Shown piece after piece: positions 6,169 through 53,093 of a stretch of 64,000 nt of DNA. The position numbers and the translations under genes were made by a program. The notes beneath the pieces are model-generated. The model saw only the letters and a list, made by a program, of their open reading frames with translations, was not told the DNA's origin and made no database searches. The stretch lies in contig NC_036464.1 of NCBI RefSeq assembly GCF_002775205.1, positions 2,386,501 through 2,450,500 of the forward strand, read 5' to 3'. Source of the stretch: Xiphophorus maculatus. Lineage: Eukaryota; Chordata; Actinopteri; Cyprinodontiformes; Poeciliidae. Numbering within the stretch: position 1 is the stretch's first letter; every line of letters starts with the position of its first letter.

Positions 6169-6329
6169 GTTCTCAACTGTTTGAAATGTTGACCGAAACA
6201 CCCTGAAAGGACCAATATAGCCTTAGAGCCACATCCCCTCCAGGCTTCCTGTTCTGGTTACTGGCAGAAAACTGAACCTTTCTGAAGAATACAGCAGAGC
6301 TGCGTGGTAACGGCTCACATTTACTGAAG

Positions 6330-7214: not shown

Positions 7215-9710
7215 CTAGAAAATTTCGGAAGAAATTTAGCCGGGGCCTGCCAAGGCGCGCCCGTCGGGCATGGGCCCGGCGTCGTCGCGCCACAAATCGG
7301 CGTCGACGCCAAAGGACGCCGCGACGTGATCAGTGGCACGCGGAGAACCGCAAGAACGTTAAGCGAGGCGGACGTGCACCGTTCGGTACGATTTAAAATG
7401 TTGTCAAGGCTTTTATTTTGGAAGTTTTGTTAACCTTCATTTCAAAGGGCCAAACTAATCCCATGCGTAATAGTCCTTGGGTTAAAATAGTTATATAATG
7501 CTCAAAACACAAGTAGCTGATGTAAAAATATTCAAGGCTTTTATTTTGAAATTTTCAGTATGCTTCATTTCAAAGGGCCAAACTAATACCACGTGTAACA
7601 GTGCTTTGGATGAAAAAGTCAAATAAAGCCAAAAAGAGCAATTACGTCATGTAAAATTATTCAAGGCTTTTATTTTGAAATTTTCAGAATGCTTCATTTC
7701 AAAGGGCCAAACTAATACCACGTGTAACAGTGCTTTGGATGAAAAAGTCAAATAAAGCCAAAAAGAGCAATTACCTGATGTAAAAATATTCAAGGCTTTT
7801 ATTTTGAAATTATTATTATGCTCCATTTTAAAGTTCCAAACTAATCCCATGTGTAACAGTGCTTTGGATGAAAAAGTCATATAAAGCCAAAAACAGCAAT
7901 TACCTGATGTAAAAATATTCAAGGCTTTTATTTTGAAATTTTCAGTATGCTTCATTTCAAAGTTCCAAAGTAATCCCATGTGTAACAGTGCTTTGGATGA
8001 AAACGTCAAATAAAGCCAAAAACAGCAATTACCTGATGTAAAAATATTCAAGGCTTTTATTTTGAAATTATTATTATGCTCCATTTTAAAGTTCCGAACT
8101 AATCCCATGTGTAACATTGCTTTGGATGAAAAAGTCATATACGGCCAAAAAGAGCAATTACTTCATGTAAAATATTCAAGGCTTTTATTTTGAAATTTTC
8201 AGTATGCTTCATTTTAAAGTTCTGAACTAATACCACGTGTAAGAGTGCTTTGGATGAAAAAGTCAAATAAAGCCAAAAAGAGCAATTACGTCATGTAAAA
8301 ATATTCAAGGCTTTTATTTTGAAACTTTTGTTAAGCTTCATTTCAAAGGGCCAAACTAATACCACGTGTAACAGTGCTTTGGATGAAAAAGTCAAATAAA
8401 GCCAAAAAGAGCAATTACATGATGTAAAAATATTCAAGGCTTTAATTTTGAAATTTTTGTTAATATTCATTTCAAAGGGCCAAACTAATACCATGTGTAA
8501 CAGTGCTTTGGATGAAAAAGTCAAATAAAGCCAAAAAGAGCAATTACGTCATGTAAAAATATTCAAGGCTTTTATTTTGAAATTTGCAGGATGCTTCATT
8601 TCAAAGGGCCAAACTAATCCCATGCGTAATAGTCCTTCGGTTAAAATAGTTATATAATGCTCAAAACACAAGTAGCTGATGTAAAAATATTCAAGGCTTT
8701 TATTTTGAAATTTTTGTTAAGCTTCATTTTAAAGGGCCAAACTAATACCATGTGTAACAGTGCTTTGGATGAAAAAGTCAAATAAAGCCAAAAAAGAGCA
8801 ATTACGTCATGTAAAAATATTCAGGGCTTTTATTGTGAAATTTTCAATATGCTTAATTTTAAAGTGTAAAACTAATCCCATGTGTAACAGTTACTGAGTT
8901 AAATCAGTTATATACAGCCCAAAGCAGCAAGTAGTTGTAAAGGCCAGTTCTCAGTCCTGATCTGTTTCAACTGAGGATAGATAGAACTACAACGATGCGT
9001 ATTCGTAGTCCTAACCAGCAGCCAATAGCCTCTTGAGTTCCGTTGCTATGGCAAATAATGGTCTCAGCAGGTGTGAGCTCTGAGCTGTGAGCTCTCAAAC
9101 ACACAAGTGTGTTTGAGCAAACACACTTTACTGAAAAAAAGCATTGGAAACAAATCCTTCTTGTTCGGGAACCGTAATACATATTCGAAAAGCGTTTTAA
9201 GCGTATGACAGTTCAATGTGTCTTCTGCGATAGTCCCGAGATTCATATCTGTACCTCACTCAGAGCATTTACAGTGATGAGAGAAAGAAATGTTGTGCCC
9301 AGATATGAACCGAGGTCGGCTGTCACTCTAATATGAGCAAAAATGAGAAACTTTGGGTCGCTTAGAGGCAAATTGTGGACAAACCATAACTGGTATCGAC
9401 GAGCCGTCTTCACTTTCGAAGAGATCACAGACGTATCTACAAAATGAAATTTGAATGGCATTTCTAGGTGAATTTGTGACGACACAGCAAATCCTCAAAA
9501 ATAGGGTATTTCTAGGATTTTTCCCATTGAGTTATAATGGGGTTTTTTTCGTAGTTTTTTGCGAATTATGTCGCCATGTTAATCCCGAATCCCACCAAAA
9601 GTAATAGCTGGAATGGCGTGAATTTTCTGCACGTTTTGATACCTCTTTTGTAGGTGTGCACGCAGCGGTATGAGCCGCATTAACGGTTACGGATGAAAAA
9701 TAAAGAATAA
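7215..9710 (+). repeat. Macrosatellite unit 1 (short-form conserved block)
   Basis: GC module 7215-7400; about 12 copies of the 129-bp repeat to about 8888; conserved block 8889-9710, short form (lacks the internal 137-codon frame). No hairpin module at its end. Its right half is nearly identical to unit 9, including the shared variant TTAATCCCGAATCCCACC. Confidence 0.9.
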
Positions 9711-12604: not shown

Positions 12605-15600
12605 CTAGAAAATTTCGGAAGAAATTTAGCCGGGGCCTGCCAAGGCGCGCCCGTCGGGCATGGTCCCGGCGTCGTCGCGCCACAAATCGGCGTCGACGCC
12701 AAAGGACGCCGCGACGTGATCAGTGGCACGCGGAGAACCGCAAGAACGTTAAGCGAGGCGGACGTGCACCGTTCGGTACGATTTAAAATGTTGTCAAGGC
12801 TTTTATTTTGGAAGTTTTGTTAACCTTCATTTCAAAGGGCCAAACTAATCCCAAGCGTAATAGTCCTTGGGTTAAAATAGTTATATAATGCTCAAAACAC
12901 AAGTAGCTGATGTAAAAATATTCAAGGCTTTTATTTTGAAATTTTCAGTATGCTTCATTTCAAAGGGCCAAACTAATACCACGTGTAACAGTGCTTTGGA
13001 TGAAAAAGTCAAATAAAGCCAAAAAGAGCAATTACGTCATGTAAAATTATTCAAGGCTTTTATTTTGAAATTTTCAGAATGCTTCATTTCAAAGGGCCAA
13101 ACTAATACCACGTGTAACAGTGCTTTGGATGAAAAAGTCAAATAAAGCCAAAAAGAGCAATTACCTGATGTAAAAATATTCAAGGCTTTTATTTTGAAAT
13201 TATTATTATGCTCCATTTTAAAGTTCCAAACTAATCCCATGTGTAACAGTGCTTTGGATGAAAAAGTCATATAAAGCCAAAAACAGCAATTACCTGATGT
13301 AAAAATATTCAAGGCTTTTATTTTGAAATTATTATTATTCTCCATTTTAAAGTTCCAAAGTAATCCCATGTGTAACAGTGCTTTGGATGAAAACGTCAAA
13401 TAAAGCCAAAAACAGCAATTACCTGATGTAAAAATATTCAAGGCTTTTATTTTGAAATTATTATTATGCTCCATTTTAAAGTTCCGAACTAATCCCATGT
13501 GTAACATTGCTTTGGATGAAAAAGTCATATACGGCCAAAAAGAGCAATTACTTCATGTAAAATATTCAAGGCTTTTATTTTGAAATTTTCAGTATGCTTC
13601 ATTTTAAAGTTCTGAACTAATACCACGTGTAAGAGTGCTTTGGATGAAAAAGTCAAATAAAGCCAAAAAGAGCAATTACGTCATGTAAAAATATTCAAGG
13701 CTTTTATTTTGAAACTTTTGTTAAGCTTCATTTCAAAGGGCCAAACTAATACCACGTGTAACAGTGCTTTGGATGAAAAAGTCAAATAAAGCCAAAAAGA
13801 GCAATTACATGATGTAAAAATATTCAAGGCTTTTATTTTGAAATTTTTGTTAATATTCATTTCAAAGGGCCAAACTAATACCATGTGTAACAGTGCTTTG
13901 GATGAAAAAGTCAAATAAAGCCAAAAAGAGCAATTACGTCATGTAAAAATATTCAAGGCTTTTATTTTGAAATTATTATTATTCTCCATTTTAAAGTTCC
14001 AAAGTAATCCCATGTGTAACAGTGCTTTGGATGAAAACGTCAAATAAAGCCAAAAACAGCAATTACCTGATGTAAAAATATTCAAGGCTTTTATTTTGAA
14101 ATTATTATTATGCTCCATTTTAAAGTTCCAAACTAATCCCATGTGTAACAGTGCTTTGGATGAAAAAGTCATATAAAGCCAAAAACAGCAATTACCTGAT
14201 GTAAAAATATTCAAGGCTTTTATTTTGAAATTATTATTATTCTCCATTTTAAAGTTCCAAACTAATCCCATGTGTAACATTGCTTTGGATGAAAAAGTCA
14301 TATACGGCCAAAAAAAGCAATTACCTGATGTAAAAATATTCAAGGCTTTTATTTTGAAATTATTATTATTCTCCATTTTAAAGTTCCAAAGTAATCCCAT
14401 GTGTAACAGTGATTTGGATGAAAACGTCAAATAAAGCCAAAAACAGCAATTACCTGATGTAAAAATATTCAAGGCTTTTATTTTGAAATTATTATTCTCC
14501 ATTTTAAAGTTCCAAACTAATCCCATGTGTAACATTGCTTTGGATGAAAAAGTCATATACGGCCAAAAAAAGCAATTACCTGATGTGAAAATATTCAAGG
14601 CTTTTATTTTGAAATTATTATTCTCCATTTTAAAGTTCCAAAGTAATCCCATGTGTAACAGTGCTTTGGATGAAAACGTCAAATAAAGCCAAAAACAGCA
14701 ATTACCTGATGTAAAAATATTCAAGGCTTTTATTTTGAAATTATTATTATGCTCCATTTTAAAGTTCCAAACTAATCCCATGTGTAACAGTTACTGAGTT
14801 AAATCAGTTATATACAGCCCATAGCAGCAGTAGTTCTAAAGGCCAGTTCTCAGTCCTGATCTGTTTCAACTGAGGATAGATAGAACTACAGTGATGCGTA
14901 TTCGTAGTCCTAACCAGCAGCCAATAGCCTCTTGAGTTCCGTTGCTATGGCAAATAATGGTCTCAGCAGGTGTGAGCTCTGAGCTGTGAGCTCTCAAACA
15001 CACAAGTGTGTTTGAGCAAACACACTTTACTGAAAAAAAGCATTGGAAACAAATCCTTCTTGTTCGGGAACCGTAATACATATTCGAAAAGCGTTTCGAG
15101 CGTATGACAGTTCAATGTGTCTTCTGCGATAGTCCCGAGATTCATATCTGTACCTCACTCAGAGCATTTACAGCGATGAGAGAAAGAAATGTTGTGCCCA
15201 TATCTGATCCGAGGTCGGCTGTCACTCTAATATGAGCAAAAATGAGAAACTTTGGGTCGCTTAGAGGCAAATTGTGGACAAACCATAACTGGTATCGACG
15301 AGCCGTCTTCACTTTCGAAGAGATCACAGACGTATCTACAAAATGAAATTTGAATGGCATTTCTAGGTGAATTTGTGACGACACAGCAAATCCTCAAAAA
15401 TAGGGTATTTCTAGGATTTTTCCCATTGAGTTATAATGGGGTTTTTTTCGTAGTTTTTTGCGAATTATGTCGCCACGTTAAGCCCAAATCCCACCAGAAG
15501 TAATAGCTCCAATGGCGTGAATTTTCTGCACGTTTTGATACCTCATTTGTAGGTGTGCACCCAGCGGTATGAGCCGCATTAACGGTTACGGAAGAAAAAT

Positions 15601-15699
15601 AAAGTTCTATAATAATAATAATAATAATAATATTAAAGAGACGCTTCTCTCCGACAATAGTAATAGGTTCCTGCCATTGCTTTGCATGGCAGGCCCCAA
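12605..15699 (+). repeat. Macrosatellite unit 3 (short form, ends with hairpin module)
   Basis: GC module from 12605; about 16 copies of the 129-bp repeat, the last part alternating two subtypes (see findings); conserved block from 14788, short form; hairpin module at the end. Confidence 0.9.
15630..15697 (+). repeat. Hairpin module, end of unit 3
   Basis: An ATAATATTAAAGAGACGC... linker followed by an 8-bp perfect stem CCTGCCAT / ATGGCAGG (15670-15677 and 15686-15693) with loop TGCTTTGC, then CCCC. It is inserted between the AATAAA-rich end of the conserved block and CTAG. Confidence 0.8.
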
Positions 15700-17063
15700 C
15701 TAGAAAATTTCGGAAGAAATTTAGCCGGGGCCTGCCAAGGCGCGCCCGTGGGGTTCGGGCCCGGCGTCGTCACGCCACAAATCGGCATCGACGCTAAAGA
15801 ACGCCGCAACGTAATCAATGGCACGCGGAGAACCGCAAGAACGTTAAGCGAGGCGGACGTGCACCATTCAGTACGATTTAAAATTTTTGTCAAGGCTTTT
15901 ATTTTGGAAGTTTTGTTAAACTTCATTTTAAAGTTCCGAACTAATACCATGTGTAACAGTGCTTTGGATGAAAAAGTCATACAAAGCCAAAAACAGCAAT
16001 TGCATGATGTAAAAATATTCAAGGCTTTTATTTTGAAATTTTCAGTATGCTCCATTTTAAAGTTTTGAACGAATCCCATGTGTAACAGTGCTTTGGATAA
16101 AAAAGTCACATAAAGCCAAAAAGCGCAATTACCTGATGTAAAAATATTCAAGGCTTTTATTTTGAAATTATTATTATGCTCCATTTTAAAGTTCCGAACT
16201 AATCCCATGTGTAACATTGCTTTGGATGAAAAAGTCAAATAAAGCTCAAAAGAGCAATTACATGATGTAAAAATATTCAAGGCTTTTATTTTGAAATTTT
16301 TGTTAAGCTTCATTTTAAAGTTCAAAACTAATCCCATGTGTAACAGTGCTTTGGATGAAAACATCATATACGGCCAAAAAAAGCAATTACATTATGTAAA
16401 AATATTCAAGGCTTTTATTTTGAAATTATTATTATGCTCCATTTTAAAGTTCCGAACTAATCCCATGTGTAACATTGCTTTGGATGAAAAAGTCATATAC
16501 GGCCAATAAGAGCAATTACGTCATGTAAAATATTCAAGGCTTTTATTTTGAAATTATTATTATGCTCCATTTTAAAGTTCCGAACTAATCCCATGTGTAA
16601 CATTGCTTTGGATGAAAAAGTCATATACGGCCAATAAGAGCAATTACGTCATGTAAAATATTCAAGGCTTTTATTTTGAAATTATTATTATGCTCCATTT
16701 TAAAGTTCCAAACTAATCCCATGTGTAACATTGCTTTGGATGAAAAAGTCATATACGGCCAAAAAGAGCAATTACGTCATGTAAAATATTCAAGGCTTTT
16801 ATTTTGAAATTTTCAGTATGCTTAATTTTAAAGTTCCAAACTAATCCCATGTGTAACAGTTACTGAGTTAAATCAGTTATATACAGCCCATAGCAGCAGG
16901 TAGTTCTAAAGGCCAGTTCTCAGTCCTGATCTGTTTCAACTGAGGATAGATAGAACTACAGCGATGCGTATCTGTAGTCCAAATCAGCAGCCAATAGCCT
17001 CTTGAGTTCCGTTGCTATGGTAAATAATGGTCTCAGCAGGGTGTGAGCTCTGAGCGCTGAGCT

Positions 17064-17089
17064 CTCAAACACACAATTGTGTGTTTGAG
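17064..17089. repeat. Perfect 26-bp palindrome in the conserved block (one per unit)
   Basis: CTCAAACACACAA followed directly by its exact reverse complement. Long-form units carry this version. Short-form units carry an 11-bp-arm version centred on AA (for example 9094-9117). It lies at a fixed place, about 200 bp after the end of the 129-bp array, in every unit except unit 10. Confidence 0.85.
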
Positions 17090-17927
17090 CAAACACATTT
17101 TACTGACAAAAAAGCATTGGAAACAAATCCTTCTTGTTCGGGAACCGTAATACATATTCGAAAAGCGTTTGCAGCGTATGACAGTTCAATGTGTCTTCTG
17201 CGATAGTCCCGAGATTCATATCTGTACCTCACTCAGAGCATTTACAGTGATGAGAGAAAGAAATGTTGTGCCCAGATCTGAAATTCTATTCAAATACATG
17301 GGAGAGAGCCTCAGACAGCCTCAGAAAATCCTGTCGCATGACTTTGCTCTGAAGCACCGTGACAGAAAACCGTACGGTCTAGATAAATTTCGAAAACATT
17401 TTACCGGAGCAGACAGGCGTATCAATGTCAGGACCGATTTTGATACTAATCGTGCGATATTTGTGGGCGTGATGGCGATTTCAAAAATGATTTGGGTTGA
17501 AAAAGTTGTCTTCATCTCTCACTCTAAGCAGCCAGAAACGCACTCTAACTTGAGCAAAAATGAGAAACTTTGGGTCGCTTAGAGGCAAATTGTGGACAAA
17601 CCGTAACTGGTATCGACGAGCCGTCTTCACTTTCGAAGAGATCACAGACGTATCTACAAAATGAAATTTGAATGGCATTTCTAGGTGAATTTGTGACGAC
17701 ACAGCAAATCCTCAAAAATAGGGTATTTCTAGGATTTTTCCCATTGAGTTATAATGGGGTTTTTTTCGCAGTTTTTTGCGAATTATGTCGCCACGTTAAG
17801 CCCAAATCCCACCAAAAATAATAGCTCCAATGGCGTGAATTTTCTGCACGTTTTGATACCTCATTTGTAGGTGTGCACCCAGCGGTATGAGCCGCATTAA
17901 CGGTGACGGAAGAAAAATAAAGAATTA

Positions 17928-17994
17928 TAATAAAGAGACACTTTGTTGGGTGTAGAGTAATAGGTTCCTGCCATTGCTTTGCATGGCAGGCCCC
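17928..17994 (+). repeat. Hairpin module, end of unit 4
   Basis: Same stem and loop; linker variant ATAAAGAGACACTTTGTTGG. Confidence 0.8.
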
Positions 17995-19466
17995 AACTAG
18001 AAAATTTCGGAAGAAATTTAGCCGGGGCCTGCCAAGGCGCGCCCGTGGGGTTCGGGCCCGGCGTCGTCACGCCACAAATCGGCATCGACGCTAAAGAACG
18101 CCGCAACGTAATCAATGGCACGCGGAGAACCGCAAGAACGTTAAGCGAGGCGGACGTGCACCATTCAGTACGATTTAAAATTTTTGTCAAGGCTTTTATT
18201 TTGGAAGTTTTGTTAAACTTCATTTTAAAGTTCCGAACTAATCCCATGTGTAACAGTGCTTTGGATGAAAAAGTCATACAAAGCCAAAAACAGCAATTGC
18301 ATGATGTAAAAACTATTCAAGGCTTTTATTTTGAAATTTTCAGTATGCTCCATTTTAAAGTTCTGAACGAATCCCATGTGTAACAGTGCTTTGGATAAAA
18401 AAGTCACATAAAGCCAAAAAGCGCAATTACCTGATGTAAAAATATGCAAGGCTTTTATTTTGAAATTATTATTATGCTCCATTTTAAAGTTCCGAACTAA
18501 TCCCATGTGTAACAGTGCTTTGGATGAAAAAGTCACATAAAGCCAAAAAGCGCAATTACCTGATGTAAAAATATTCAAGGCTTTTATTTTGAAATTATTA
18601 TTATGCTCCATTTTAAAGTTCCGAACAAATCCCATGTGTAACAGTGCTTTGGATGAAAAAGTCATATACGGCCAAAAAGAGCAATTACATGACATAAAAA
18701 TATTCAAGGCTTTTATTTTGAAATTTTCAGTATGCTTCATTTCAGAGGGCCAAACTATTCCATTGTGTAACAGTGCTTTGGATAAAAAAGTCACATAAAG
18801 CCAAAAAGCGCAATTACCTGATGTAAAAATATTCAAGGCTTTTATTTTGAAATTATTATTATGCTCCATTTTAAAGTTCCGAACTAATCCCATGTGTAAC
18901 ATTGCTTTGGATGAAAAAGTCATATACGGCCAATAAGAGCAATTACGTCATGTAAAATATTCAAGGCTTTTATTTTGAAATTATTATTATGCTCCATTTT
19001 AAAGTTCCAAACTAATCCCATGTGTAACATTGCTTTGGATGAAAAAGTCATATACGGCCAAAAAGAGCAATTACGTCATGTAAAATATTCAAGGCTTTTA
19101 TTTTGAAATTTTCAGTATGCTTAATTTTAAAGTTCCAAACTAATCCCATGTGTAACAGTTACTGAGTTCAATCAGTTATATACAGCCCATAGCAGCAGGT
19201 AGTTCTAAAGGCCAGTTCTCAGTCCTGATCTGTTTCAACTGAGGATAGATAGAACTACAGCGATGCGTATCTGTAGTCCAAATCAGCAGCCAATAGCCTC
19301 TTGAGTTCCGTTGCTATGGTAAATAATGGTCTCAGCAGGTGTGAGCTCTGAGCGCTGAGCTCTCAAACACACAATTGTGTGTTTGAGCAAACACATTTTA
19401 CTGACAAAAAAGCATTGGAAACAAATCCTTCTTGTTCGGGAACCGTAATACATATTCGAAAAGCGT

Positions 19467-19880
19467 TTGCAGCGTATGACAGTTCAATGTGTCTTCTGCG
19501 ATAGTCCCGAGATTCATATCTGTACCTCACTCAGAACATTTACAGCGATGAGAGAAAGAAATGTTGTGCCCAGATCTGAAATTCTATTCAAATACATGGG
19601 AGAGAGCCTCAGACAGCCTCAGAAAATCCTGTCGCATGACTTTGCTCTGAAGCACCGTGACAGAAAACCGTACGGTCTAGATAAATTTCGAAAACATTTT
19701 ACCGGAGCAGACAGGCGTATCAATGTCAGGACCGATTTTGATACTAATCGTGCGATATTTGTGGGCGTGATGGCGATTTCAAAAATGATTTGGGTTGAAA
19801 AAGTTGTCTTCATCTCTCACTCTAAGCAGCCAGAAACGCACTCTAACTTGAGCAAAAATGAGAAACTTTGGGTCGCTTAG
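19467..19880 (+). other. Recurrent 137-codon open frame in long-form units; function unknown, coding doubtful
   Basis: The frame runs from ATG (MQRMTVQCVFCDSPEIHICT...) to a TAG just after KNEKLWVA. It recurs at 17169-17582, 19467-19880, 24960-25373 and 27191-27604, as a slightly shorter version at 21525-21929, and as a tail at 33382-33633. Short-form units lack about 250 bp of it, always with the same junction. No known domain, signal peptide or membrane segment is visible; a CVFCDSPEIHIC segment has three cysteines and a histidine but no complete zinc-finger pattern. Differences between copies (A/T, V/A, F/C) are few and mostly change the amino acid, which does not suggest protein constraint. 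Most likely a chance frame kept open by recent amplification. Confidence 0.2.
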
Positions 19881-20226
19881 AGGCAAATTGTGGACAAACC
19901 GTAACTGGTATCGACGAGCCGTCTTCACTTTCGAAGAGATCACAGACGTATCTACAAAATGAAATTTGAATGGCATTTCTAGGTGAATTTGTGACGACAC
20001 AGCAAATCCTCAAAAATAGGGTATTTCTAGGATTTTTCCCATTGAGTTATAATGGGGTTTTTTTCGCAGTTTTTTGCGAATTATGTCGCCACGTTAAGCC
20101 CAAATCCCACCAAAAATAATAGCTCCAATGGCGTGAATTTTCTGCACGTTTTGATACCTCATTTGTAGGTGTGCACCCAGCGGTACGAGCCGCATTAACG
20201 GTTACGGAAGAAAAATAAAGAATTAT

Positions 20227-20297
20227 AATAATATTAAAGAGACGCTTGTTGGGTGTAGAGTAATAGGTTCCTGCCATTGCTTTGCATGGCAGGCCCC
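20227..20297 (+). repeat. Hairpin module, end of unit 5
   Basis: Same stem and loop; linker variant with GACGCTTGTTGGGTGTAG. Confidence 0.8.
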
Positions 20298-20299
20298 AA

Positions 20300-25300: not shown

Positions 25301-25721
25301 CTTCATCTCTCACTCTAAGCAGCCAGAAACGCACTCTAACTTGAGCAAAAATGAGAAACTTTGGGTCGCTTAGAGGCAAATTGTGGACAAACCGTAACTG
25401 GTATCGACGAGCCGTCTTCACTTTCGAAGAGATCACAGACGTATCTACAAAATGAAATTTGAATGGCATTTCTAGGTGAATTTGTGACGACACAGCAAAT
25501 CCTCAAAAATAGGGTATTTCTAGGATTTTTCCCATTGAGTTATAATGGGGTTTTTTTCGCAGTTTTTTGCGAATTATGTCGCCACGTTAAGCCCAAATCC
25601 CACCAAAAATAATAGCTCCAATGGCGTGAATTTTCTGCACGTTTTGATACCTCATTTGTAGGTGTGCACCCAGCGGTACGAGCCGCATTAACGGTTACGG
25701 AAGAAAAATAAAGAATTATAA
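22340..25721 (+). repeat. Macrosatellite unit 7 (long form, longest unit)
   Basis: About 17 copies of the 129-bp repeat. The left part resembles units 1, 3 and 9; the right part, from about 23730, matches units 5 and 8, so this unit looks like a recombinant. Conserved block from 24649, long form, frame 24960-25373. No hairpin module at its end. Confidence 0.9.
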
Positions 25722-28094
25722 CTAGAAAATTTCGGAAGAAATTTAGCCGGGGCCTGCCAAGGCGCGCCCGTGGGGTTCGGGCCCGGCGTCGTCACGCCAC
25801 AAATCGGCATCGACGCTAAAGAACGCCGCGACGTAATCAATGGCACGCGGAGAACCGCAAGAACGTTAAGCGAGGCGGACGTGCACCATTCAGTACGATT
25901 TAAAATTTTTGTCAAGGCTTTTATTTTGGAAGTTTTGTTAAACTTCATTTTAAAGTTCCGAACTAATCCCATGTGTAACAGTGCTTTGGATGAAAAAGTC
26001 ATACAAAGCCAAAAACAGCAATTGCATGATGTAAAAATATTCAAGGCTTTTATTTTGAAATTTTCAGTATGCTCCATTTTAAAGTTCTGAACGAATCCCA
26101 TGTGTAACAGTGCTTTGGATAAAAAAGTCACATAAAGCCAAAAAGCGCAATTACCTGATGTAAAAATATGCAAGGCTTTTATTTTGAAATTATTATTATG
26201 CTCCATTTTAAAGTTCCGAACTAATCCCATGTGTAACAGTGCTTTGGATGAAAAAGTCACATAAAGCCAAAAAGCGCAATTACCTGATGTAAAAATATTC
26301 AAGGCTTTTATTTTGAAATTATTATTATGCTCCATTTTAAAGTTCCGAACAAATCCCATGTGTAACAGTGCTTTGGATGAAAAAGTCATATACGGCCAAA
26401 AAGAGCAATTACATGACGTAAAAATATTCAAGGCTTTTATTTTGAAATTTTCAGTATGCTTCATTTCAGAGGGCCAAACTATTCCATTGTGTAACAGTGC
26501 TTTGGATAAAAAAGTCACATAAAGCCAAAAAGCGCAATTACCTGATGTAAAAATATTCAAGGCTTTTATTTTGAAATTATTATTATGCTCCATTTTAAAG
26601 TTCCGAACTAATCCCATGTGTAACATTGCTTTGGATGAAAAAGTCATATACGGCCAATAAGAGCAATTACGTCATGTAAAATATTCAAGGCTTTTATTTT
26701 GAAATTATTATTATGCTCCATTTTAAAGTTCCAAACTAATCCCATGTGTAACATTGCTTTGGATGAAAAAGTCATATACGGCCAAAAAGAGCAATTACGT
26801 CATGTAAAATATTCAAGGCTTTTATTTTGAAATTTTCAGTATGCTTAATTTTAAAGTTCCAAACTAATCCCATGTGTAACAGTTACTGAGTTCAATCAGT
26901 TATATACAGCCCATAGCAGCAGGTAGTTCTAAAGGCCAGTTCTCAGTCCTGATCTGTTTCAACTGAGGATAGATAGAACTACAGCGATGCGTATCTGTAG
27001 TCCAAATCAGCAGCCAATAGCCTCTTGAGTTCCGTTGCTATGGTAAATAATGGTCTCAGCAGGTGTGAGCTCTGAGCGCTGAGCTCTCAAACACACAATT
27101 GTGTGTTTGAGCAAACACATTTTACTGACAAAAAAGCATTGGAAACAAATCCTTCTTGTTCGGGAACCGTAATACATATTCGAAAAGCGTTTGCAGCGTA
27201 TGACAGTTCAATGTGTCTTCTGCGATAGTCCCGAGATTCATATCTGTACCTCACTCAGAACATTTACAGCGATGAGAGAAAGAAATGTTGTGCCCAGATC
27301 TGAAATTCTATTCAAATACATGGGAGAGAGCCTCAGACAGCCTCAGAAAATCCTGTCGCATGACTTTGCTCTGAAGCACCGTGACAGAAAACCGTATGGT
27401 CTAGATAAATTTCGAAAACATTTTACCGGAGCAGACAGGCGTATCAATGTCAGGACCGATTTTGATACTAATCGTGCGATATTTGTGGGCGTGATGGCGA
27501 TTTCAAAAATGATTTGGGTTGAAAAAGTTGTCTTCATCTCTCACTCTAAGCAGCCAGAAACGCACTCTAACTTGAGCAAAAATGAGAAACTTTGGGTCGC
27601 TTAGAGGCAAATTGTGGACAAACCGTAACTGGTATCGACGAGCCGTCTTCACTTTCGAAGAGATCACAGACGTATCTACAAAATGAAATTTGAATGGCAT
27701 TTCTAGGTGAATTTGTGACGACACAGCAAATCCTCAAAAATAGGGTATTTCTAGGATTTTTCCCATTGAGTTATAATGGGGTTTTTTTCGCAGTTTTTTG
27801 CGAATTATGTCGCCACGTTAAGCCCAAATCCCACCAAAAATAATAGCTCCAATGGCGTGAATTTTCTGCACGTTTTGATACCTCATTTGTAGGTGTGCAC
27901 CCAGCGGTACGAGCCGCATTAACGGTTACGGAAGAAAAATAAAGAATTATAATAATATTAAAGAGACGCTTGTTGGGTGTAGAGTAATAGGTTCCTGCCA
28001 TTGCTTTGCATGGCAGGCCCCAATAATATTAAAGAGACGCTTGTTGGGTGTAGAGTAATAGGTTCCTGCCATTGCTTTGCATGGCAGGCCCCAA
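25722..28094 (+). repeat. Macrosatellite unit 8 (long form, double hairpin module)
   Basis: About 8 copies; conserved block from 26880, long form, frame 27191-27604. The unit ends in two almost identical hairpin modules in tandem (27950-28092). Confidence 0.9.
27950..28092 (+). repeat. Two tandem hairpin modules, end of unit 8
   Basis: Two near-identical copies of about 71 bp (27950-28020 and 28021-28092). This shows that the module itself can duplicate in tandem, independently of the big unit. Confidence 0.85.
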
Positions 28095-31094
28095 CTAGAA
28101 AATTTCGGAAGAAATTTAGCCGGGGCCTGCCAAGGCGCGGCCGTGGGGTTCGGGCCCGGCGTCGTCGCGCCACAAATCGGCGTCGACGCCAAAGAACGCC
28201 GCGACGTAAGCAGTGGCACGCGGAGAACCGCAAGAACGTTAAGCGAGGCGGACGTGCATCGTTCGGTACGATTTAAAATGTTGTCGAGGCTTTTATTTTG
28301 GAAGTTTTGTTAAACTTCATTTCAAAGGGCCAAACTAATCCCATGCGTAATAGTCCTTGGGTTAAAATAGTTATATAATGCTCAAAACACAAGTAGCTGA
28401 TGTAAAAATATTCAAGGCTTTTATTTTGAAATTTTGAGTATGCTTCATTTCAAAGGGCCAAACTAATACCACGTGTAACAGTGCTTTGGATGAAAAAGTC
28501 AAATAAAGCCAAAAAGAGCAATTACGTCATGTAAAATTATTCAAGGCTTTTATTTTGAAATTTTCAGTATGCTTCATTTCAAAGGGCCAAACTAATACCA
28601 CGTGTAACAGTGCTTTGGATGAAAAAGTCAAATAAAGCCAAAAAGAGCAATTACCTGATGTAAAAATATTCAAGGCTTTTATTTTGAAATTATTATTATT
28701 CTCCATTTTAAAGTTCCAAAGTAATCCCATGTGTAACAGTGCTTTGGATGAAAACGTCAAATAAAGCCAAAAACAGCAATTACCTGATGTAAAAATATTC
28801 AAGGCTTTTATTTTGAAATTATTATTATTCTCCATTTTAAAGTTCCAAAGTAATCCCATGTGTAACAGTGCTTTGGATGAAAACGTCAAATAAAGCCAAA
28901 AACAGCAATTACCTGATGTAAAAATATTCAAGGCTTTTATTTTGAAATTATTATTCTCCATTTTAAAGTTCCAAACTAATCCCATGTGTAACAGTGCTTT
29001 GGATGAAAACGTCAAATAAAGCCAAAAACAGCAATTACCTGATGTAAAAATATTCAAGGCTTTTATTTTGAAATTATTATTCTCCATTTTAAAGTTCCAA
29101 ACTAATCCCATGTGTAACATTGCTTTGGATGAAAAAGTCATATACGGCCAAAAAAAGCAATTACCTGATGTAAAAATATTCAAGGCTTTTATTTTGAAAT
29201 TATTATTATTCTCCATTTTAAAGTTCCAAAGTAATCCCATGTGTAACAGTGATTTGGATGAAAACGTCAAATAAAGCCAAAAACAGCAATTACCTGATGT
29301 AAAAATATTCAAGGCTTTTATTTTGAAATTATTATTCTCCATTTTAAAGTTCCAAACTAATCCCATGTGTAACATTGCTTTGGATGAAAAAGTCATATAC
29401 GGCCAAAAAAAGCAATTACCTGATGTGAAAATATTCAAGGCTTTTATTTTGAAATTATTATTCTCCATTTTAAAGTTCCAAAGTAATCCCATGTGTAACA
29501 TTGCTTTGGATGAAAAAGTCATATACGGCCAAAAAGAGCAATTACTTCATGTAAAATATTCAAGGCTTTTATTTTGAAATTTTCAGTATGCTTCATTTTA
29601 AAGTTCTGAACTAATACCACGTGTAAGAGTGCTTTGGATGAAAAAGTCAAATAAAGCCAAAAAGAGCAATTACGTCATGTAAAAATATTCAAGGCTTTTA
29701 TTTTGAAACTTTTGTTAAGCTTCATTTCAAAGGGCCAAACTAATACCACGTGTAACAGTGCTTTGGATGAAAAAGTCAAATAAAGCCAAAAAGAGCAATT
29801 ACATGATGTAAAAATATTCAAGGCTTTAATTTTGAAATTTTTGTTAATATTCATTTCAAAGGGCCAAACTAATACCATGTGTAACAGTGCTTTGGATGAA
29901 AAAGTCAAATAAAGCCAAAAAGAGCAATTACGTCATGTAAAAATATTCAAGGCTTTTATTTTGAAATTTGCAGGATGCTTCATTTCAAAGGGCCAAACTA
30001 ATCCCATGCGTAATAGTCCTTCGGTTAAAATAGTTATATAATGCTCAAAACACAAGTAGCTGATGTAAAAATATTCAAGGCTTTTATTTTGAAATTTTTG
30101 TTAAGCTTCATTTTAAAGGGCCAAACTAATACCATGTGTAACAGTGCTTTGGATGAAAAAGTCAAATAAAGCCAAAAAAGAGCAATTACGTCATGTAAAA
30201 ATATTCAGGGCTTTTATTGTGAAATTTTCAATATGCTTAATTTTAAAGTGTAAAACTAATCCCATGTGTAACAGTTACTGAGTTAAATCAGTTATATACA
30301 GCCCAAAGCAGCAAGTAGTTGTAAAGGCCAGTTCTCAGTCCTGATCTGTTTCAACTGAGGATAGATAGAACTACAACGATGCGTATTCGTAGTCCTAACC
30401 AGCAGCCAATAGCCTCTTGAGTTCCGTTGCTATGGCAAATAATGGTCTCAGCAGGTGTGAGCTCTGAGCTGTGAGCTCTCAAACACACAAGTGTGTTTGA
30501 GCAAACACACTTTACTGAAAAAAAGCATTGGAAACAAATCCTTCTTGTTCGGGAACCGTAATACATATTCGAAAAGCGTTTTAAGCGTATGACAGTTCAA
30601 TGTGTCTTCTGCGATAGTCCCGAGATTCATATCTGTACCTCACTCAGAGCATTTACAGTGATGAGAGAAAGAAATGTTGTGCCCAGATATGAACCGAGGT
30701 CGGCTGTCACTCTAATATGAGCAAAAATGAGAAACTTTGGGTCGCTTAGAGGCAAATTGTGGACAAACCATAACTGGTATCGACGAGCCGTCTTCACTTT
30801 CGAAGAGATCACAGACGTATCTACAAAATGAAATTTGAATGGCATTTCTAGGTGAATTTGTGACGACACAGCAAATCCTCAAAAATAGGGTATTTCTAGG
30901 ATTTTTCCCATTGAGTTATAATGGGGTTTTTTTCGTAGTTTTTTGCGAATTATGTCGCCATGTTAATCCCGAATCCCACCAAAAGTAATAGCTGGAATGG
31001 CGTGAATTTTCTGCACGTTTTGATACCTCTTTTGTAGGTGTGCACGCAGCGGTATGAGCCGCATTAACGGTTACGGATGAAAAATAAAGAATAA
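28095..31094 (+). repeat. Macrosatellite unit 9 (short form)
   Basis: About 16 copies, with alternating subtypes in the middle; conserved block from 30272, short form, nearly identical to unit 1. No hairpin module at the end. Confidence 0.9.
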
Positions 31095-34046
31095 CTAGAA
31101 AATTTCTGAAGAAATTTAGCCGGGGCCTGCCAAGGCGCGCCCGTCGGGCTTGGGCCCGGCGTCGTCACGGCACAAATTGGCGTCGATGCTAAAGAACGCC
31201 GCAACGTAATCAGTGGCACGCGGAGAACCGCAAGAACGTTAAGCGAGGCGGACGTGCACCATTCAGTATGATTTAAAATGTTGTCAAGGCTTTTATTTTG
31301 GAAGTTTTGTTAAACTTCATTTCAAAGGGCCAAACTAATCCCATGCGTAACAGTCATTGGGTTAAAATAGTTATATAATGCTCAAAACACAAGTAGCTGA
31401 TGTAAAAATATTCAAGGCTTTTATTTTGAAATGTTTGTTAAGCTTCATTTCAAAGCGCCAAACTAATCCTATGTTTATCAGTGCTTTGGATGAAAACGTC
31501 AAATAAAGCCAAAAAGAGCAATTACGTCATGTAAAAATATTCAAGGCTTTTATTTTGAAATTTTCAGTATGCTTCATTTCAAAGGGCCAAACTAATACCA
31601 TGTGTAACAGTGCTTTGGATGAAAAAGTCAAATAAAGCCAAAAAGAGCAATTACGTCATGTAAAAATATTCAAGGCTTTTATTTTGAAATTTGCAGGATG
31701 CTTCATTTCAAAGGGCCAAACTAATACCATGTGTAACAGTGCTTTGGATGAAAAAGTCAAATAAAGCCAAAAAGAGCAATTACATGATGTAAAAAGTATT
31801 CAAGGCTTTTATTTTGAAATTTTTGTTAAGCTTCATTTCAAAGGGCCAAACTAATACCATGTGTAACAGTGCTTTGGATGAAAAAGTCAAATAAAGCCAC
31901 AAAGAGCAATTACGTCATGTAAAAATATTCAAGGCTTTTATTGTGAAATTTTCAGTATGCTTCATTTCAAAGGGCCAAACTAATACCATGTGTAACAGTG
32001 CTTTGGATGAAAAAGTCAAATAAAGCCAAAAAGAGCAATTACATGATGTAAAAAGTATTCAAGGCTTTTATTTTGAAATTTTTGTTAAGCTTCATTTCAA
32101 AGGGCCAAACTAATACCATGTGTAACAGTGCTTTGGATGAAAAAGTCAAATAAAGCCACAAAGAGCAATTACGTCATGTAAAAATATTCAAGGCTTTTAT
32201 TGTGAAATTTTCAGTATGCTTCATTTCAAAGGGCCAAACTAATACCATGTGTAACAGTGCTTTGGATGAAAAAGTCAAATAAAGCCAAAAAGAGCAATGA
32301 CGTCATGTAAAAATATTCAAGGCTTTTATTTTGGAATTTTTGTGAAACTTCATTTCAAAGGGCCAAACTAATACCATGTGTAACAGTGCTTTGGATGAAA
32401 AAGTCAAATAAAGCCAAAAAGAGCAATTACATGATGTAAAAATATTCAAGGCTTTTATTTTGGAATTTTTGTTAAACTTCATTTCAAAATGCCAACCTTA
32501 TCCCATGAATAACAGTCATTGGATAAAATTAGTTATATAGTGCTCAAAAAAGCAATAATCTTATGTAAAAATTCTCAAGGCTTTTATTTTGAAATTTTCA
32601 GTATGCTTCATTTCAAAGGGCCAAACTAATACCATGTGTAACAGTGCTTTGGATGAAAAAGTCAAATAAAGCCAAAAAGAGCAATTACATGATGTAAAAA
32701 TATTCAAGGCTTTTATTTTGAAATTTTCAGTATGCTTCATTTCAAAGGGCCAAACTAATACCATGTGTAACAGTGCTTTGGATGAAAAAGTCAAATAAAG
32801 CCAAAAAGAGCAATTACATGATGTAAAAATATTCAAGGCTTTTATTTTGAAATTTTTGTTAAGCTTCATTTCAAAGGGCCAAACTAATACCATGTGTAAC
32901 AGTGCTTTGGATGAAAACGTGAAATAATGCCAAAAACAGCAATTACCTGATGTAAAAATATTCAAGGCTTTTATTTTGAAATTTTCATCAAGCTTAATTT
33001 TAAATTGCCACACTAATCCCATGTGTAACAATTGCTGGGTTAAATCAGTTATATACAGCTCAAAAGAGCAATTTTCTGATGTAAAAATATTCAAGGCTTT
33101 TATTGTGAAATTTTTGTTAAGCTTCATTTTAAAGTTCAAAACTAATCCCATGTGTAACAGTTACTAAGTTAAATCAGTTATATACAGCCCATAGCAGCAA
33201 TTAGTTCTAAAGGCCAGTTCAGTCCTGATCTGTTTCAACTGAGGATAGATAGAACTACAACGATGCGTATTTGTAGTCCAAATCAGCAGCCAATAGCCTC
33301 TTGAGTTCCGTTGCTATGTTAAATAAGTTTCTCACCAAGGTGTGAAATGTCAGTGAGACAGCCTGAGAGCCTCAGAAAATCTTGTCGCATCACTTTGCTC
33401 TGAAGCACCGTGACAGAAAACCGTACGGTCTAGATAAATTTCGAAAACATTTTACCGGAGCAGACAGGCGTATCAATGTCAGGACCGATTTTGATACCAA
33501 TCGTGCGATATTTGTGGCCGTGATGGCGATTTCAAAAATGATTTGGGTTGAAAAAGTTGTCTTGATCTCTCACTCTAAGCAGCGAGAGAAGCACTCTAAC
33601 TTTAGGAAAAATGAGAAACTTTGGGTCGCTTAGAGGCAAATTGTGGACAAACCGTAACTGGTATCGACGAGCCGTCTTCACTTTGGAAGAGATCACAGAC
33701 GTATCTACAAAATGAAATTTGAATGGCATTTCTAGGTGAATTTGTGACGACACAGCAAATCCTCAAAAATAGGGTATTTCCAGGATTTTTCCCATTGACT
33801 TATAATGGGGTTTTTTTCGTAGTTTTTTGCGAATTATGTCGCCACGTTAACCCCAAATCCCACCAAAAATAATAGCTCCAATGGCGTGAATTTTCTGCAC
33901 GTTTTGATACCTCATTTGTAGGTGTGCACCCAGCGGTATGAGCCGCATTAACGGTGACGGAAGAAAAATAAAGAATTATAATAAAGAGACGCTTGTTGGG
34001 TGTAGAGTAATAGGTTCCTGCCATTGCTTTGCATGGCAGGCCCCAA
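31095..34046 (+). repeat. Macrosatellite unit 10 (divergent, partial long form)
   Basis: About 15 copies of more diverged 129-bp repeats, including repeated pairs around 31790-32280. Conserved block from 33158 keeps only the second half of the long form (frame 33382-33633) and lacks the CTCAAACACAC palindrome. Hairpin module at the end. Confidence 0.85.
33977..34044 (+). repeat. Hairpin module, end of unit 10
   Basis: Same stem and loop; linker GACGCTTGTTGGGTGTAG. Confidence 0.8.
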
Positions 34047-36815
34047 CTAGAAAATTTCGGAAGAAATTTAGCCGGGGCCTGCCAAGGCGCGCCCGTGGGG
34101 TTTTGGGCCCGGCGTCGTCACGCCACAAGTCGGCGTCGACGCTAAAGAACGCCGCGACGTGACCAGCGGCACGCGGAGAACCGCAAGAACGTTAAGCGAG
34201 GCGGACATGCACCATTCGGTACGATTTAAAATTTTCTCAAGGCTTTTATTTTGGAAGTTTTGTTAAACTTCATTTCAAAGGGCCAAACTAATCCCATGCG
34301 TAATAGTCCTTGGGTTAAAATAGTTATATAATGCTGAAAACAGCAATTACATGATGTAAAAATATTCAAGGTTTTTATTTTGAAATTATTATTATGCTTA
34401 ATTTTAAAGTTACGAACTAATCACATGTGTAACAGTGCTTTGGATGAAAAAGTCATACAAAGACAAAAACAGCAATTGCATGATGTAAAAATATTCAAGG
34501 CTTTTATTTTGAAATTATTATTATGCTCCATTTTAAAGTTCCGAACTAATACCACGTGTAACATTGCTTTGGATGAAAAAGTCACATAAAGCCAAAAACA
34601 GCAATTACCTGATGTAACAACATTCAAGGCTTTTATTTTGAAATTATTATTATGCTCCATTTTAAAGTTCCGAACTAATCCCATGTGTAACATTGCTTTG
34701 GATGAAAAAGTCATATACGGCCAAAAAGAGCAATTACTTCATGTAAAATATTCAAGGCTTTTATTTTGAAATTTTCAGTATGCTTCATTTTAAAGTTCTG
34801 AACTAATACCACGTGTAAGAGTGCTGTGGATGAAAAAGTCAAATAAAGCCAAAAAGAGCAATTACGTCATGTAAAAATATTCAAGGCTTTTATTTTGAAA
34901 TTTTTGTTAAGCTTCATTTTAAAGGGCCAAACTAATACCACGTGTAACAGTGCTTTGGATGAAAAAGTCACATAAAGCCAAAAACAGCAATTACCTGATG
35001 TAAAAATATTCAAGGCTTTTATTTTGAAATTATTATTATTCTCCATTTTAAAGTTCCAAAGTAATCCAATGTGTAACAGTGCTTTGGATGAAAACGTCAA
35101 ATAAAGCCAAAAACAGCAATTACCTGATGTAAAACTATTCAAGGCTTTTATTTTGAAATTATTATTATGCTCCATTTTAAAGTTCCAAAGTAATCCCATG
35201 TGTAACAGTGCTTTGGATGAAAACGTCAAATAAAGCCAAAAAAAGCAATTACCTGATGTAAAAATATTCAAGGCTTTTATTTTGAAATTATTATTATTCT
35301 CCATTTTAAAGTTCCAAAGTAATCCCATGTGTAACAGTGCTTTGGATGAAAACGTCAAATAAAGCCAAAAACAGCAATTACCTGATGTAAAACTATTCAA
35401 GGCTTTTATTTTGAAATTATTATTATTCTCCATTTTAAAGTTCCAAAGTAATCCCATGTGTAACAGTGCTTTGGATGAAAACGTCAAATAAAGCCAAAAA
35501 CAGCAATTACCTGATGTAAAAATATTCAAGGCTTTTATTTTGAAATTATTATTCTCCATTTTAAAGTTCCAAACTAATCCCATGTGTAACATTGCTTTGG
35601 ATGAAAAAGTCATATACGGCCAAAAAAAGCAATTACCTGATGTAAAAATATTCAAGGCTTTTATTTTGAAATTATTATTATTCTCCATTTTAAAGTTCCA
35701 AAGTAATCCCATGTGTAACAGTGCTTTGGATGAAAACGTCAAATAAAGCCAAAAACAGCAATTACCTGATGTAAAACTATTCAAGGCTTTTATTTTGAAA
35801 TTATTATTATGCTCCATTTTAAAGTTCCAAACTAATCCCATGTGTAACAGTTACTGAGTTAAATCAGTTATATACAGCCCATAGCAGCAGTAGTTCTAAA
35901 GGCCAGTTCTCAGTCCTGATCTGTTTCAACTGAGGATAGATAGAACTACAGCGATGCGTATTCGTAGTCCAAATCAGCAGCCAATAGCCTCTTGAGTTCC
36001 GTTGCTATGGCAAATAATGGTCTCAGCAGGTGTGAGCTCTGAGCTGTGAGCTCTCAAACACACAAGTGTGTTTGAGCAAACACACTTTACTGAAAAAAAG
36101 CATTGGAAACAAATCCTTCTTGTTCGGGAACCGTAATACATATTCGAAAAGCGTTTCGAGCGTATGACAGTTCAATGTGTCTTCTGCGATAGTCCCGAGA
36201 TTCATATCTGTACCTCACTCAGAGCATTTACAGTGATGAGAGAAAGAAATGTTGTGCCCAGATATGAACCGAGATGGGCTGTCACTCTAATTTGAAGAAA
36301 AATGAGAAACTTTGGGTCGCTTAGAGGCAAATTGTGGACAAACCGTAACTGGTATCGACGAGCCGTCTTCACTTTCGAAGAGATCACAGACGTATCTACA
36401 AAATGAAATTTGAATGGCATTTCTAGGTGAATTTGTGACGACACAGCAAATCCTCAAAAATAGGGTATTTCTAGGATTTTTCCCATTGAGTTATAATGGG
36501 GTTTTTTTCGCAGTTTTTTGCGAATTATGTCGCCACGTTAAGCCCAAATCCCACCAAAAATAATAGCTCCAATGGCGTGAATTTTCTGCACGTTTTGATA
36601 CCTCATTTGTAGGTGTGCACCCAGCGGTATGAGCCGCATTAACGGTTACGGAAGAAAAATAAAGAATTATAATAAAGAGACGCTTCTCTCCGACAATAGT
36701 AATAGGTTCCTGCCATTGCTTTGCATGGCAGGCCCCAATAATAATAAAGAAACTTTTCTTGGGAGAATAGCAATAGGTTCCTGCCATTGCTTTGCATGGC
36801 AGGCCCCAATAATAG
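34047..36815 (+). repeat. Macrosatellite unit 11 (short form, array end, double hairpin)
   Basis: About 13 copies; conserved block from 35848, short form. Two hairpin modules in tandem close the array, which stops after AATAATAG at about 36815. No further CTAGAAAATTTC follows. Confidence 0.9.
36670..36807 (+). repeat. Two tandem hairpin modules closing the array
   Basis: Two modules (36670-36737 and 36738-36807) with clearly different linkers (GACGCTTCTCTCCGACAATA versus AACTTTTCTTGGGAGAATAG) but the same hairpin half from AATAGGTTCCTGCC to GGCCCC. Confidence 0.85.
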
Positions 36816-52752: not shown

Positions 52753-52821
52753 GACGGAGCGTCTCCGCCGCCCTGAATATCCACGTCTAACTTGAACAAC
52801 TCCACACCATCTAGCCCGCGG

Positions 52822-53032
52822 TTCTTTGTGATCAAAATGGCGGCCGCTCGTTGTCCTTGGCGGTTGGAAAGAAACGTAACGGTTTGTATGTAACGGCTCG
52901 CAGCTGTAGCTGCGTTGAGACAACAGCCGTAAAAACGACGTTTTACTAGAAGAGCTCCACAACCACAGAGCCTGAGGCTCTTTATGATCAAAATGGCGGC
53001 CGCTCGTTGTCCTTGGCGGTTGGAAAGAACTG
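52822..53032 (-). promoter_or_regulatory. Promoter of Ig copy 2 with two duplicated YY1-type blocks
   Basis: A block of about 50 bp containing GATCAAAATGGCGGCCGCTC occurs twice, 156 bp apart (52822-52873 and 52977-53030). Each holds AAAATGGCGGC (52834-52844 and 52990-53000), close to the YY1 consensus AAGATGGCGGC found near many CpG promoters. It lies 70-280 bp upstream of the start codon. Function is inferred. Confidence 0.5.
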
Positions 53033-53093
53033 TTAAGGTTTCTGAAATGGAGTGAGCCTCAAAATGTCTTAATTTATACAAATATCATCATTC

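What the first reader, a model, noticed from the sequence alone, without database searches (positions are those of the whole stretch)
7215..36815. Three-level macrosatellite: 129-bp repeat inside 2.0-3.4-kb units, 11 units head to tail
A non-coding element of fixed plan (GC module, expandable 129-bp array, conserved block with palindrome and hairpins) fills 29.6 kb. Internal copy number ranges from about 6 to 17 while the other parts keep their size. Head-to-tail arrangement with hairpins at the boundaries could reflect rolling-circle amplification or simple unequal exchange. I recognise no enzyme that would drive it. Parts of it look familiar to me as recurring fish genome sequence, but I cannot name a family.
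Basis: partly seen in the sequence, partly recalled or inferred. Interest (0 to 1): 0.8.

Follow-up and report, generated by a model that had tools for sequence, protein, structure and literature searches.

The report
Jumping gene that nests in itself
The 29.6-kb repeat block is a Russian doll of one transposon family (non-autonomous Helentrons) whose copies insert, in the same direction, into the front end of other copies; the same genome also holds an uninterrupted enzyme gene in a relative with the same ends, so the growth of such arrays can be tested directly.

Summary
In detail: 11 head-to-tail units, 7215-36809, with 134 internal monomers of about 129 bp. Read on the minus strand, each unit is a HINE (non-autonomous Helentron): TT, GGGGCCTGCCA repeat with hairpin, T-rich stretch, core, 6-17 central repeats, GC-rich end with the inverse repeat, palindrome, CTAG, TT.

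The 704-Mb genome holds 1,725 exact 5' tips and 1,134 exact 3' ends. One element on contig C2 has the family's ends and a 2,305-aa open frame with Rep, Pif1-helicase and endonuclease domains, the Helentron set.

The array grew largely by self-insertion. Unit 7's tail plus the spare tip of unit 8 equals intact tails (91 of 91 bases). The rejoined outer-host junction (34 nt) occurs uninterrupted 74 times. Of all 48 exact 3' ends on contig C1, 32 lie in or against another copy's 5' end; only 1 lies in an unrelated (TAA)n, though (TAA)5 is common. Copies of unit 5 are nearly identical, hence recent. Exchange between 129-bp arrays also shuffled units.

HINEs, tandem Helitrons and self-insertion with doubled 5' ends are published; the scale and self-preference look new. 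Two window units lack a matching tip, and a wrong-tip control did not discriminate.

The parts
7215..9710 (-). Unit 1: HINE body, 12 monomers, short core, 5' tip missing; 0 of 2,496 differences from bodies on contigs C23 and C20
9711..12604 (-). Unit 2: HINE body, 15 monomers, short core, 5' tip missing
12605..15699 (-). Unit 3: complete HINE, 16 monomers, short core
15700..17996 (-). Unit 4: complete HINE, 8 monomers, long core
17997..20299 (-). Unit 5: complete HINE, 8 monomers; 15 full-length copies with 0-2 mismatches (one also with a one-base gap) on 12 other contigs
20300..22339 (-). Unit 6: complete HINE, 6 monomers
22340..25721 (-). Unit 7: HINE body, 17 monomers, split in its 5' tail by unit 8
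25722..28023 (-). Unit 8: complete HINE, 99.8% identical to unit 5 from terminus to terminus, nested in unit 7
28024..28094 (-). Spare 71-bp 5' tip, identical to unit 8's own tip; read as the severed 5' end of unit 7
   Evidence: rejoined tail 0 of 91 differences from units 5 and 8
28095..31094 (-). Unit 9: HINE body, 16 monomers, mosaic (3' side like unit 7, 5' side like unit 1), tip missing
31095..34046 (-). Unit 10: complete HINE with a deleted core, 15 monomers
34047..36738 (-). Unit 11: complete HINE, 13 monomers, short core
36739..36809 (-). Outermost spare 5' tip, read as the severed 5' end of a unit 1/unit 9 type host; 71 of 71 letters found also at the C2 Helentron
7215..7252 (-). Example 3' terminus: subterminal inverted repeat TGGCAGGCCCC, palindrome AAATTTCTTCCGAAATTT, CTAG
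15626..15699 (-). Example 5' terminus: TT, GGGGCCTGCCA subterminal repeat, internal complementary repeat (hairpin), then the T-rich stretch in which other copies insert

Best explanation
Each unit is a non-autonomous Helentron (HINE) with satellite-like 129-bp central repeats. It is probably mobilised in trans by an autonomous Helentron of the same genome that carries the same ends. A new copy enters at TT within, or exactly at, the T-rich 5' end of a resident copy, in the same orientation. The host is split: its body is left without a tip on one side, and its 71-bp tip is stranded on the other side of the newcomer. Repetition gives head-to-tail arrays of bodies and stacks of tips (Russian dolls). 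Most likely the transposase recognises the 5' terminus of a resident copy (its own binding and nicking site) and uses TT there or nearby as target. Unequal exchange or template switching among the 129-bp arrays then changes monomer number and makes mosaic units. Shown by sequence: anatomy, nested junctions, near-identity of copies, presence of an autonomous type with the same ends. Inferred: trans-mobilisation, recognition of the resident 5' end, rolling-circle copying, present-day activity.
For: HINE anatomy: 11-nt inverted repeat 2 nt from the 5' and 27 nt from the 3' terminus of unit 4 (0 of 2,000 single-base shuffles of the two ends reach it) and a palindrome 5 nt from the 3' end, close to the published HINE plan (passages). 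TT adjoins CTAG in 10 of 11 window units. Unit 7 tail plus the spare tip of unit 8: 0 of 91 differences from the tails of units 5 and 8. Unit 8 matches unit 5 from terminus to terminus, identity ending 2 and 0 bp beyond. The rejoined junction of the outermost tip with the unit 1/9 tail (34 nt) occurs uninterrupted 74 times, reversed control 0. In 5 of 5 other loci whose array lies whole in the fetched stretch, bodies and tips balance like brackets. On C1, 32 of 48 exact 3' ends are in (23, 15 distinct junction strings) or abut (9) another copy's 5' end; 42 of 43 neighbour pairs on C1+C2 share strand. 1 of the 16 other sites (L048) is a (TAA)n stretch, though (TAA)5 has 57,100 matches. Sixteen copies of unit 5 (15 elsewhere, plus unit 8) have 0-3 mismatches in 2,303 bp. 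The C2 element has the family's 3' end, a 2,305-aa frame with Rep, Pif1-helicase and endonuclease domains, and the tail and 71-nt tip of window units 1/9 and the outermost tip.
Against: In the window two bodies (units 1 and 2 by the bracket parse) have no matching tip. A wrong-tip control did not discriminate: of 17 rejoined hosts, another locus's tip scored closer to an intact tail in 14, tied in 2 and was worse in 1, partly because the library of 10 intact tails lacked the host subfamilies. Abutting junctions (6 of 10 internal junctions in the window, 9 of 48 on C1) would look the same if made from end-joined circles. The doubled tip of unit 8 could also come from a 71-bp duplication, but then the loss of the same 71 bp from unit 7 needs a second event. 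The 14 large loci were the densest candidates of a ranked search; only the C1 set is free of that bias, and only for copies with an exact 27-nt 3' end. Some junction strings recur (15 distinct of 23), so copies are not all independent. Trans-mobilisation was not tested.
Confidence: 0.87

Rival explanations
1. Rolling-circle concatemers: a circle or a missed 3' end makes several units in one event, inserted together.
For: CTAG followed by TTGGGG is what end-joined circles would give; Helraiser makes such circles (passages) and tandem Helitrons are put down to bypassed termination (section read).
Against: Does not explain tipless bodies joined at differing points of the T-rich tail with a fitting tip beyond the neighbour, nor units of different subfamilies side by side (GC module identity 89.8-100%). 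Plant arrays of the concatemer type are reviewed as having many 5' and one 3' end (passage); here there are 11 3' ends and 9 tips.
Confidence: 0.2
2. Unequal crossing-over of an initial tandem pair built the array, as in an ordinary satellite.
For: Monomer barcodes show units 3, 7 and 9 as combinations of other units' array halves; unit 7's last 2,007 bp are 99.8% unit 8 while its GC module is 98.4% unit 9.
Against: Near-identical units sit on 13 contigs, with differing outer flanks in the 7 loci where these were printed; unit 8 begins and ends exactly at termini; junction points differ. Good as a second process only.
Confidence: 0.25
3. The insertions simply seek T-rich (TTA)n stretches, of which the family's own 5' tail is one.
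For: HINEs are known to insert in T-rich DNA at TT (passages); 14 of the 16 other sites on C1 also show TT.
Against: (TAA)5 has 57,100 overlapping matches, roughly 10,000 loci by extrapolation from 100 listed matches, yet 1 of 48 C1 sites is an unrelated (TAA)n against 23 in tails and 9 at the tip. (TAA)5 is not a stand-in for every T-rich site.
Confidence: 0.15
4. Assembly artefact.
For: Tandem repeats are prone to it; no reads were available here.
Against: Units differ (GC module 89.8-100%); nested structures with different junctions recur on many contigs.
Confidence: 0.03

Closest known systems
HINE / DINE-1 (non-autonomous Helentrons; Thomas et al. 2014, PMC4067079, passages and one section read)
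   Same: Subterminal inverted repeats near both ends, 3' palindrome, central tandem repeats in some, insertion at TT, no coding capacity; autonomous partner with Rep, helicase and endonuclease.
   Different: Clusters are mentioned there, but not self-insertion as the main fate in what I read; here 32 of 48 sampled copies sit in or against another copy's 5' end. 3' spacing is shorter (27 nt against 38-60; palindrome 5 nt from the end against 8-35).
Cg_HINE of the Pacific oyster (PMC7492417, passages read)
   Same: 5' repeat, its internal complement, microsatellite, satellite-like central repeats (140-180 bp), 3' repeat, palindrome.
   Different: Different host; arrays of whole elements by nesting were not in the passages I read.
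Fusarium oxysporum FoHeli self-insertion (PMC5148889, passages read)
   Same: Insertion near the 5' end of another copy; duplicated short 5' termini explained by self-insertion; one case of three copies in tandem in Metarhizium.
   Different: A few cases there; here 32 of 48 on one contig, and stacks of up to 8 tips.
Transposon dimers formed by insertion-site preference as satellite seeds (McGurk and Barbash 2018, seen only as cited in PMC12628747)
   Same: Tandem transposons arise from insertion-site preference.
   Different: Other transposons, in Drosophila melanogaster.
Centromeric Helitron arrays of plants (Xiong et al. 2016, seen only as cited in PMC12628747)
   Same: Tandem arrays of rolling-circle elements.
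   Different: Many 5' ends and a single 3' end there; here every unit keeps its 3' end and most keep a tip.

Membership tests
HINE (non-autonomous Helentron) | Subterminal inverted repeats close to both ends | tested here: met
   11-nt GGGGCCTGCCA / TGGCAGGCCCC in unit 4, 2 nt and 27 nt from the termini; 0 of 2,000 shuffles
HINE (non-autonomous Helentron) | Palindrome near the 3' end | tested here: met
   AAATTTC/GAAATTT stem 5 nt from the end; exact form in 9 of 11 units; the fold is only weakly better than shuffles (z -1.1, 26 of 200 as good)
HINE (non-autonomous Helentron) | Insertion at TT / T-rich DNA without larger target duplication | tested here: met
   TT beside the 3' end in 42 of 48 on C1; the rejoined sites show no duplication beyond an ambiguous TT
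HINE (non-autonomous Helentron) | Shares ends with an autonomous Helentron of the same genome | tested here: met
   One C2 element: 3' end 93% over 174 bp, core fragment 90% over 192 bp, tail and 71-nt tip identical to window units 1/9 and the outermost tip
Helentron (autonomous, C2) | Rep + helicase + endonuclease in one protein | tested here: met
   PF14214, PF05970 and PF03372, all above cut-off, in 2,103 aa of the 2,305-aa frame
Helentron (autonomous, C2) | Helentron-type Rep motif residues | not tested
   No alignment to reference Rep proteins was made
Canonical Helitron | 5' TC and insertion between A and T | tested here: not met
   5' end is TTGGGG; TT at 42 of 48 sites
Satellite DNA / macrosatellite | Tandem array grown by unequal exchange at one or few loci | tested here: not met
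   Over a thousand dispersed ends with nested junctions, although exchange also acts
HINE (non-autonomous Helentron) | Trans-mobilisation by the Helentron enzyme | not testable with these tools
   Needs an experiment

The most novel reading that the evidence does not exclude
A self-homing rolling-circle transposon: the Helentron transposase treats the 5' terminus of resident copies, its own start site, as the preferred target, so that each insertion splits a relative, separates its 5' tip from its body and leaves a new intact 5' end as the next target. Satellites then grow by orientation-fixed nesting, and the family largely spares other DNA.
Probability: 0.45. Interest if true: 0.78.

Novelty: new variant of a known kind. 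Interest (0 to 1): 0.6.

Why it matters
How Helitron-like elements form tandem arrays and seed satellites has been argued largely from truncated or decayed copies (as reviewed in PMC12628747, passages). Here a family with near-identical copies, readable junctions and an uninterrupted enzyme-coding relative sits in one genome, so target choice, circle formation and array growth can be tested. A transposon that mostly hits itself would also be a way of multiplying with little harm to its host.

Tried and rejected
Coding: the 143-aa plus-strand frame of the long-core units has no Pfam match above cut-off in the two copies scanned, and among units 4-8 its differences do not favour third codon positions; judged non-coding. 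A minus-strand array frame scored above the Pfam cut-off for phage Gp54 (58 against 27 bits, no stretch passing on its own); put down to the repeated frame. Rfam: 0 matches at gathering threshold in the window. Exact motif scans: viral contigs 0 in 4 scans, genome contigs 0 in 1 scan. My first reading, that the identity of units 1 and 9 and of units 5 and 8 shows exchange within the array, was weakened when the same bodies turned up on other contigs. A first bracket parse had a tie-sorting fault and was replaced.

Rejoin test, 17 hosts in all: differences from the nearest of 10 intact tails were 0 in three (L012, one body of L017, window unit 7), 2 in one body of L022, 3 in L013 and L016, 6 in L015 and the other body of L017, 8 in L019, 11-12 in L009, L010, L011, L014, L018, L020 and window unit 9, and 26 in the other body of L022. 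Putting on another locus's tip gave a lower number in 14 of 17, so this control does not show that each tip fits only its own host. The genome count of the rejoined 34-nt junction bears on the 11-12 group with that exact junction (L010, L011, L014, L020, window); L009 and L018 have slightly different junctions and were not counted.

Literature: 8 searches of the held library. In the listings I saw no fish HINE array of this kind; subscription papers and Repbase could not be searched, so the family may be catalogued there. Harttia catfish has one 150-bp satellite tied to Helitrons (passages).
Full report
CHECK. The array is real. Eleven units start with CTAGAAAA, are 2,040-3,382 bp long from start to start and hold 6-17 monomers of about 129 bp, 134 in all. 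BLAST with the end, tip, core and a monomer found no other copy in the window.

WHAT A UNIT IS. On the minus strand a complete unit reads: TT, GGGGCCTGCCA, an internal complementary repeat that makes a hairpin (DNA fold -10 kcal/mol, z -2.3), a T-rich stretch, a 0.8- or 1.05-kb core (0.93 in unit 10), the 129-bp array, a GC-rich end of about 187 bp holding TGGCAGGCCCC, a palindrome and CTAG, then TT. The 11-nt inverted repeat was reached by 0 of 2,000 single-base shuffles (unit 4). This is close to the published plan of HINEs, the non-autonomous Helentrons (passages of PMC4067079 and PMC7492417). Spacing at the 3' end is shorter than reported in mites.

THE ENZYME. The window lies in a 704-Mb, 101-contig assembly. 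That size, the chromosome-sized contigs seen (20-33 Mb) and an Ig-domain gene whose nearest solved structures are CD58 and CD48 fit a teleost; that is inference. The Helitron_like_N family matches 24 places: 14 at 128-138 bits (one with a stop inside; open frames otherwise mostly 2,251-2,341 aa, one 1,701 and one implausible 17,154), 9 at 110-113 bits (1,733-2,885 aa) and one fragment. One of the 14, on C2, sits among ends of this family. Its element begins with the family's 3' end at C2:152709 (93% over 174 bp), holds a 2,305-aa frame at C2:155192-162106 on the element's strand, and ends with a core fragment (90% over 192 bp) and the tail TGAAAAATAAAGAATAA. Another element follows that tail, and beyond it lies a tip whose 71 letters equal the outermost tip of the window; the tail equals that of window units 1 and 9. 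In 2,103 aa of the frame Pfam finds Helitron_like_N, PIF1 and Exo_endo_phos: Rep, helicase and endonuclease, the defining Helentron set. The other Rep copies' ends were not examined.

HOW THE ARRAY GREW. Four window units lack the tip and two carry a spare one. Joining the tail of unit 7 to the spare tip of unit 8 gives a sequence identical (91 of 91) to the tails of units 5 and 8. Unit 8 equals unit 5 (99.8%) from terminus to terminus, and the identity ends 2 bp and 0 bp beyond. So unit 8 most simply inserted at TT in the tail of unit 7. The outermost tip of the window, joined to the tail shared by units 1 and 9, gives a 34-nt junction that exists uninterrupted 74 times in the genome, against 0 for the reversed control.

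GENOME-WIDE. Exact tips: 1,725 (control 0). Exact 3' ends: 1,134 (control 0). In the 14 large loci fetched, the 15 copies of unit 5 all lie in, or in one case against, another copy's 5' end, with stacks of up to 6 tips; these loci were the densest candidates (14 scored of 1,652) and so are biased. In the 5 loci whose array lies whole in the fetched stretch (L009, L010, L011, L012, L018) bodies and tips balance like brackets, 5 of 5; six that are cut on the body side (L013, L015, L016, L017, L019, L022) show spare tips as expected; L014, L020 and L021 are cut too and were not counted. A set without that bias is all 48 exact 3' ends on C1: 23 in another copy's tail (15 distinct junction strings), 9 exactly against a tip, 16 in other DNA; 42 of 48 show TT. 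On C1 and C2, 54 of 72 3' ends lie within 10 kb of another on the same strand, and 42 of 43 neighbour pairs share strand; random placement gives a mean of 0.8 such pairs. On C1, 56 of 83 exact tips are in same-strand stacks, the largest of 8. By my arithmetic the exact tips with about 90 bp each make some 0.02% of the genome, yet take two thirds of the C1 sample.

WHY ITSELF. T-richness alone does not seem to explain it: (TAA)5 has 57,100 overlapping matches, roughly 10,000 loci by extrapolation, and 1 of 48 insertions is in an unrelated (TAA)n; of the 23 in tails only 2 show (TAA)5 on the body side of the junction. The likeliest cause is recognition of the resident 5' end by the transposase, which must bind and nick there to start its own copying (inference from Helitron biochemistry; passages of PMC5876387). 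Insertions exactly at the 5' border fit a nick at the resident's own start site; those in the tail fit a tethered enzyme choosing a nearby TT.

AGE. Sixteen copies of unit 5 (15 on other contigs, and unit 8) differ from it by 0-3 mismatches in 2,303 bp, and window unit 1 is identical over 2,496 bp to bodies on C23 and C20. Unit 5 entered that same body type at two different points (L009 against L011). The burst is recent; present activity is not shown.

SECOND PROCESS. Monomer barcodes show units as combinations of array halves: unit 9 has the start of unit 7 and the end of unit 1; unit 3 the start of unit 1 and the end of unit 11; unit 7 the start of unit 9 and the end of units 5 and 8. Exchange or template switching inside the 129-bp arrays thus changes length and mixes flanks.

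WHAT DOES NOT FIT. The bracket parse of the window leaves two bodies without a tip. Loss of tips by exchange or deletion is possible but not shown. Abutting junctions cannot be told from end-joined circles. Of 17 rejoined hosts only 3 match an intact tail of my small library exactly, and in 14 another locus's tip scored closer: tip subfamilies are too alike and the library too small for that control to decide.

KNOWN OR NEW. HINEs with central repeats, tandem Helitrons and self-insertion giving doubled 5' ends are all in print. What I did not find in the 8 searches made is a vertebrate family in which self-insertion is the commonest fate and builds such arrays, with an autonomous element nested in the same manner. 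I file it as a new variant of a known kind.

Noticed in passing
window 5416-6222, 52051-53058, 56731-57606 (minus strand), partial 60350-60626: Three immunoglobulin-domain genes, 53-62% identical to each other, with a fourth partial copy; the one searched resembles CD58/CD48. The array lies between members of this cluster.
   Followed up: partly
genome C6, C11, C14, C17, C18, C21, C25, C51, C67: A second group of 9 Helitron_like_N matches (109.8-113 bits, open frames 1,733-2,885 aa), apart from the 14 stronger ones; perhaps another rolling-circle family; its ends were not examined.
   Followed up: no
genome C1:19858444-19858982 and C1:4300166-4300634: Stacks of 8 tips (71-75 bp apart) and 7 tips (68-84 bp apart), a small satellite made of transposon 5' ends. 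Whether each tip has its own displaced body was not checked.
   Followed up: no
genome C15:4758936-4759535: Rep match reported inside an open frame of 17,154 aa; improbable length, perhaps an assembly or masking effect.
   Followed up: no
window 42001-46000: Strong A over T skew (0.20-0.25) with purine-rich short repeats.
   Followed up: no
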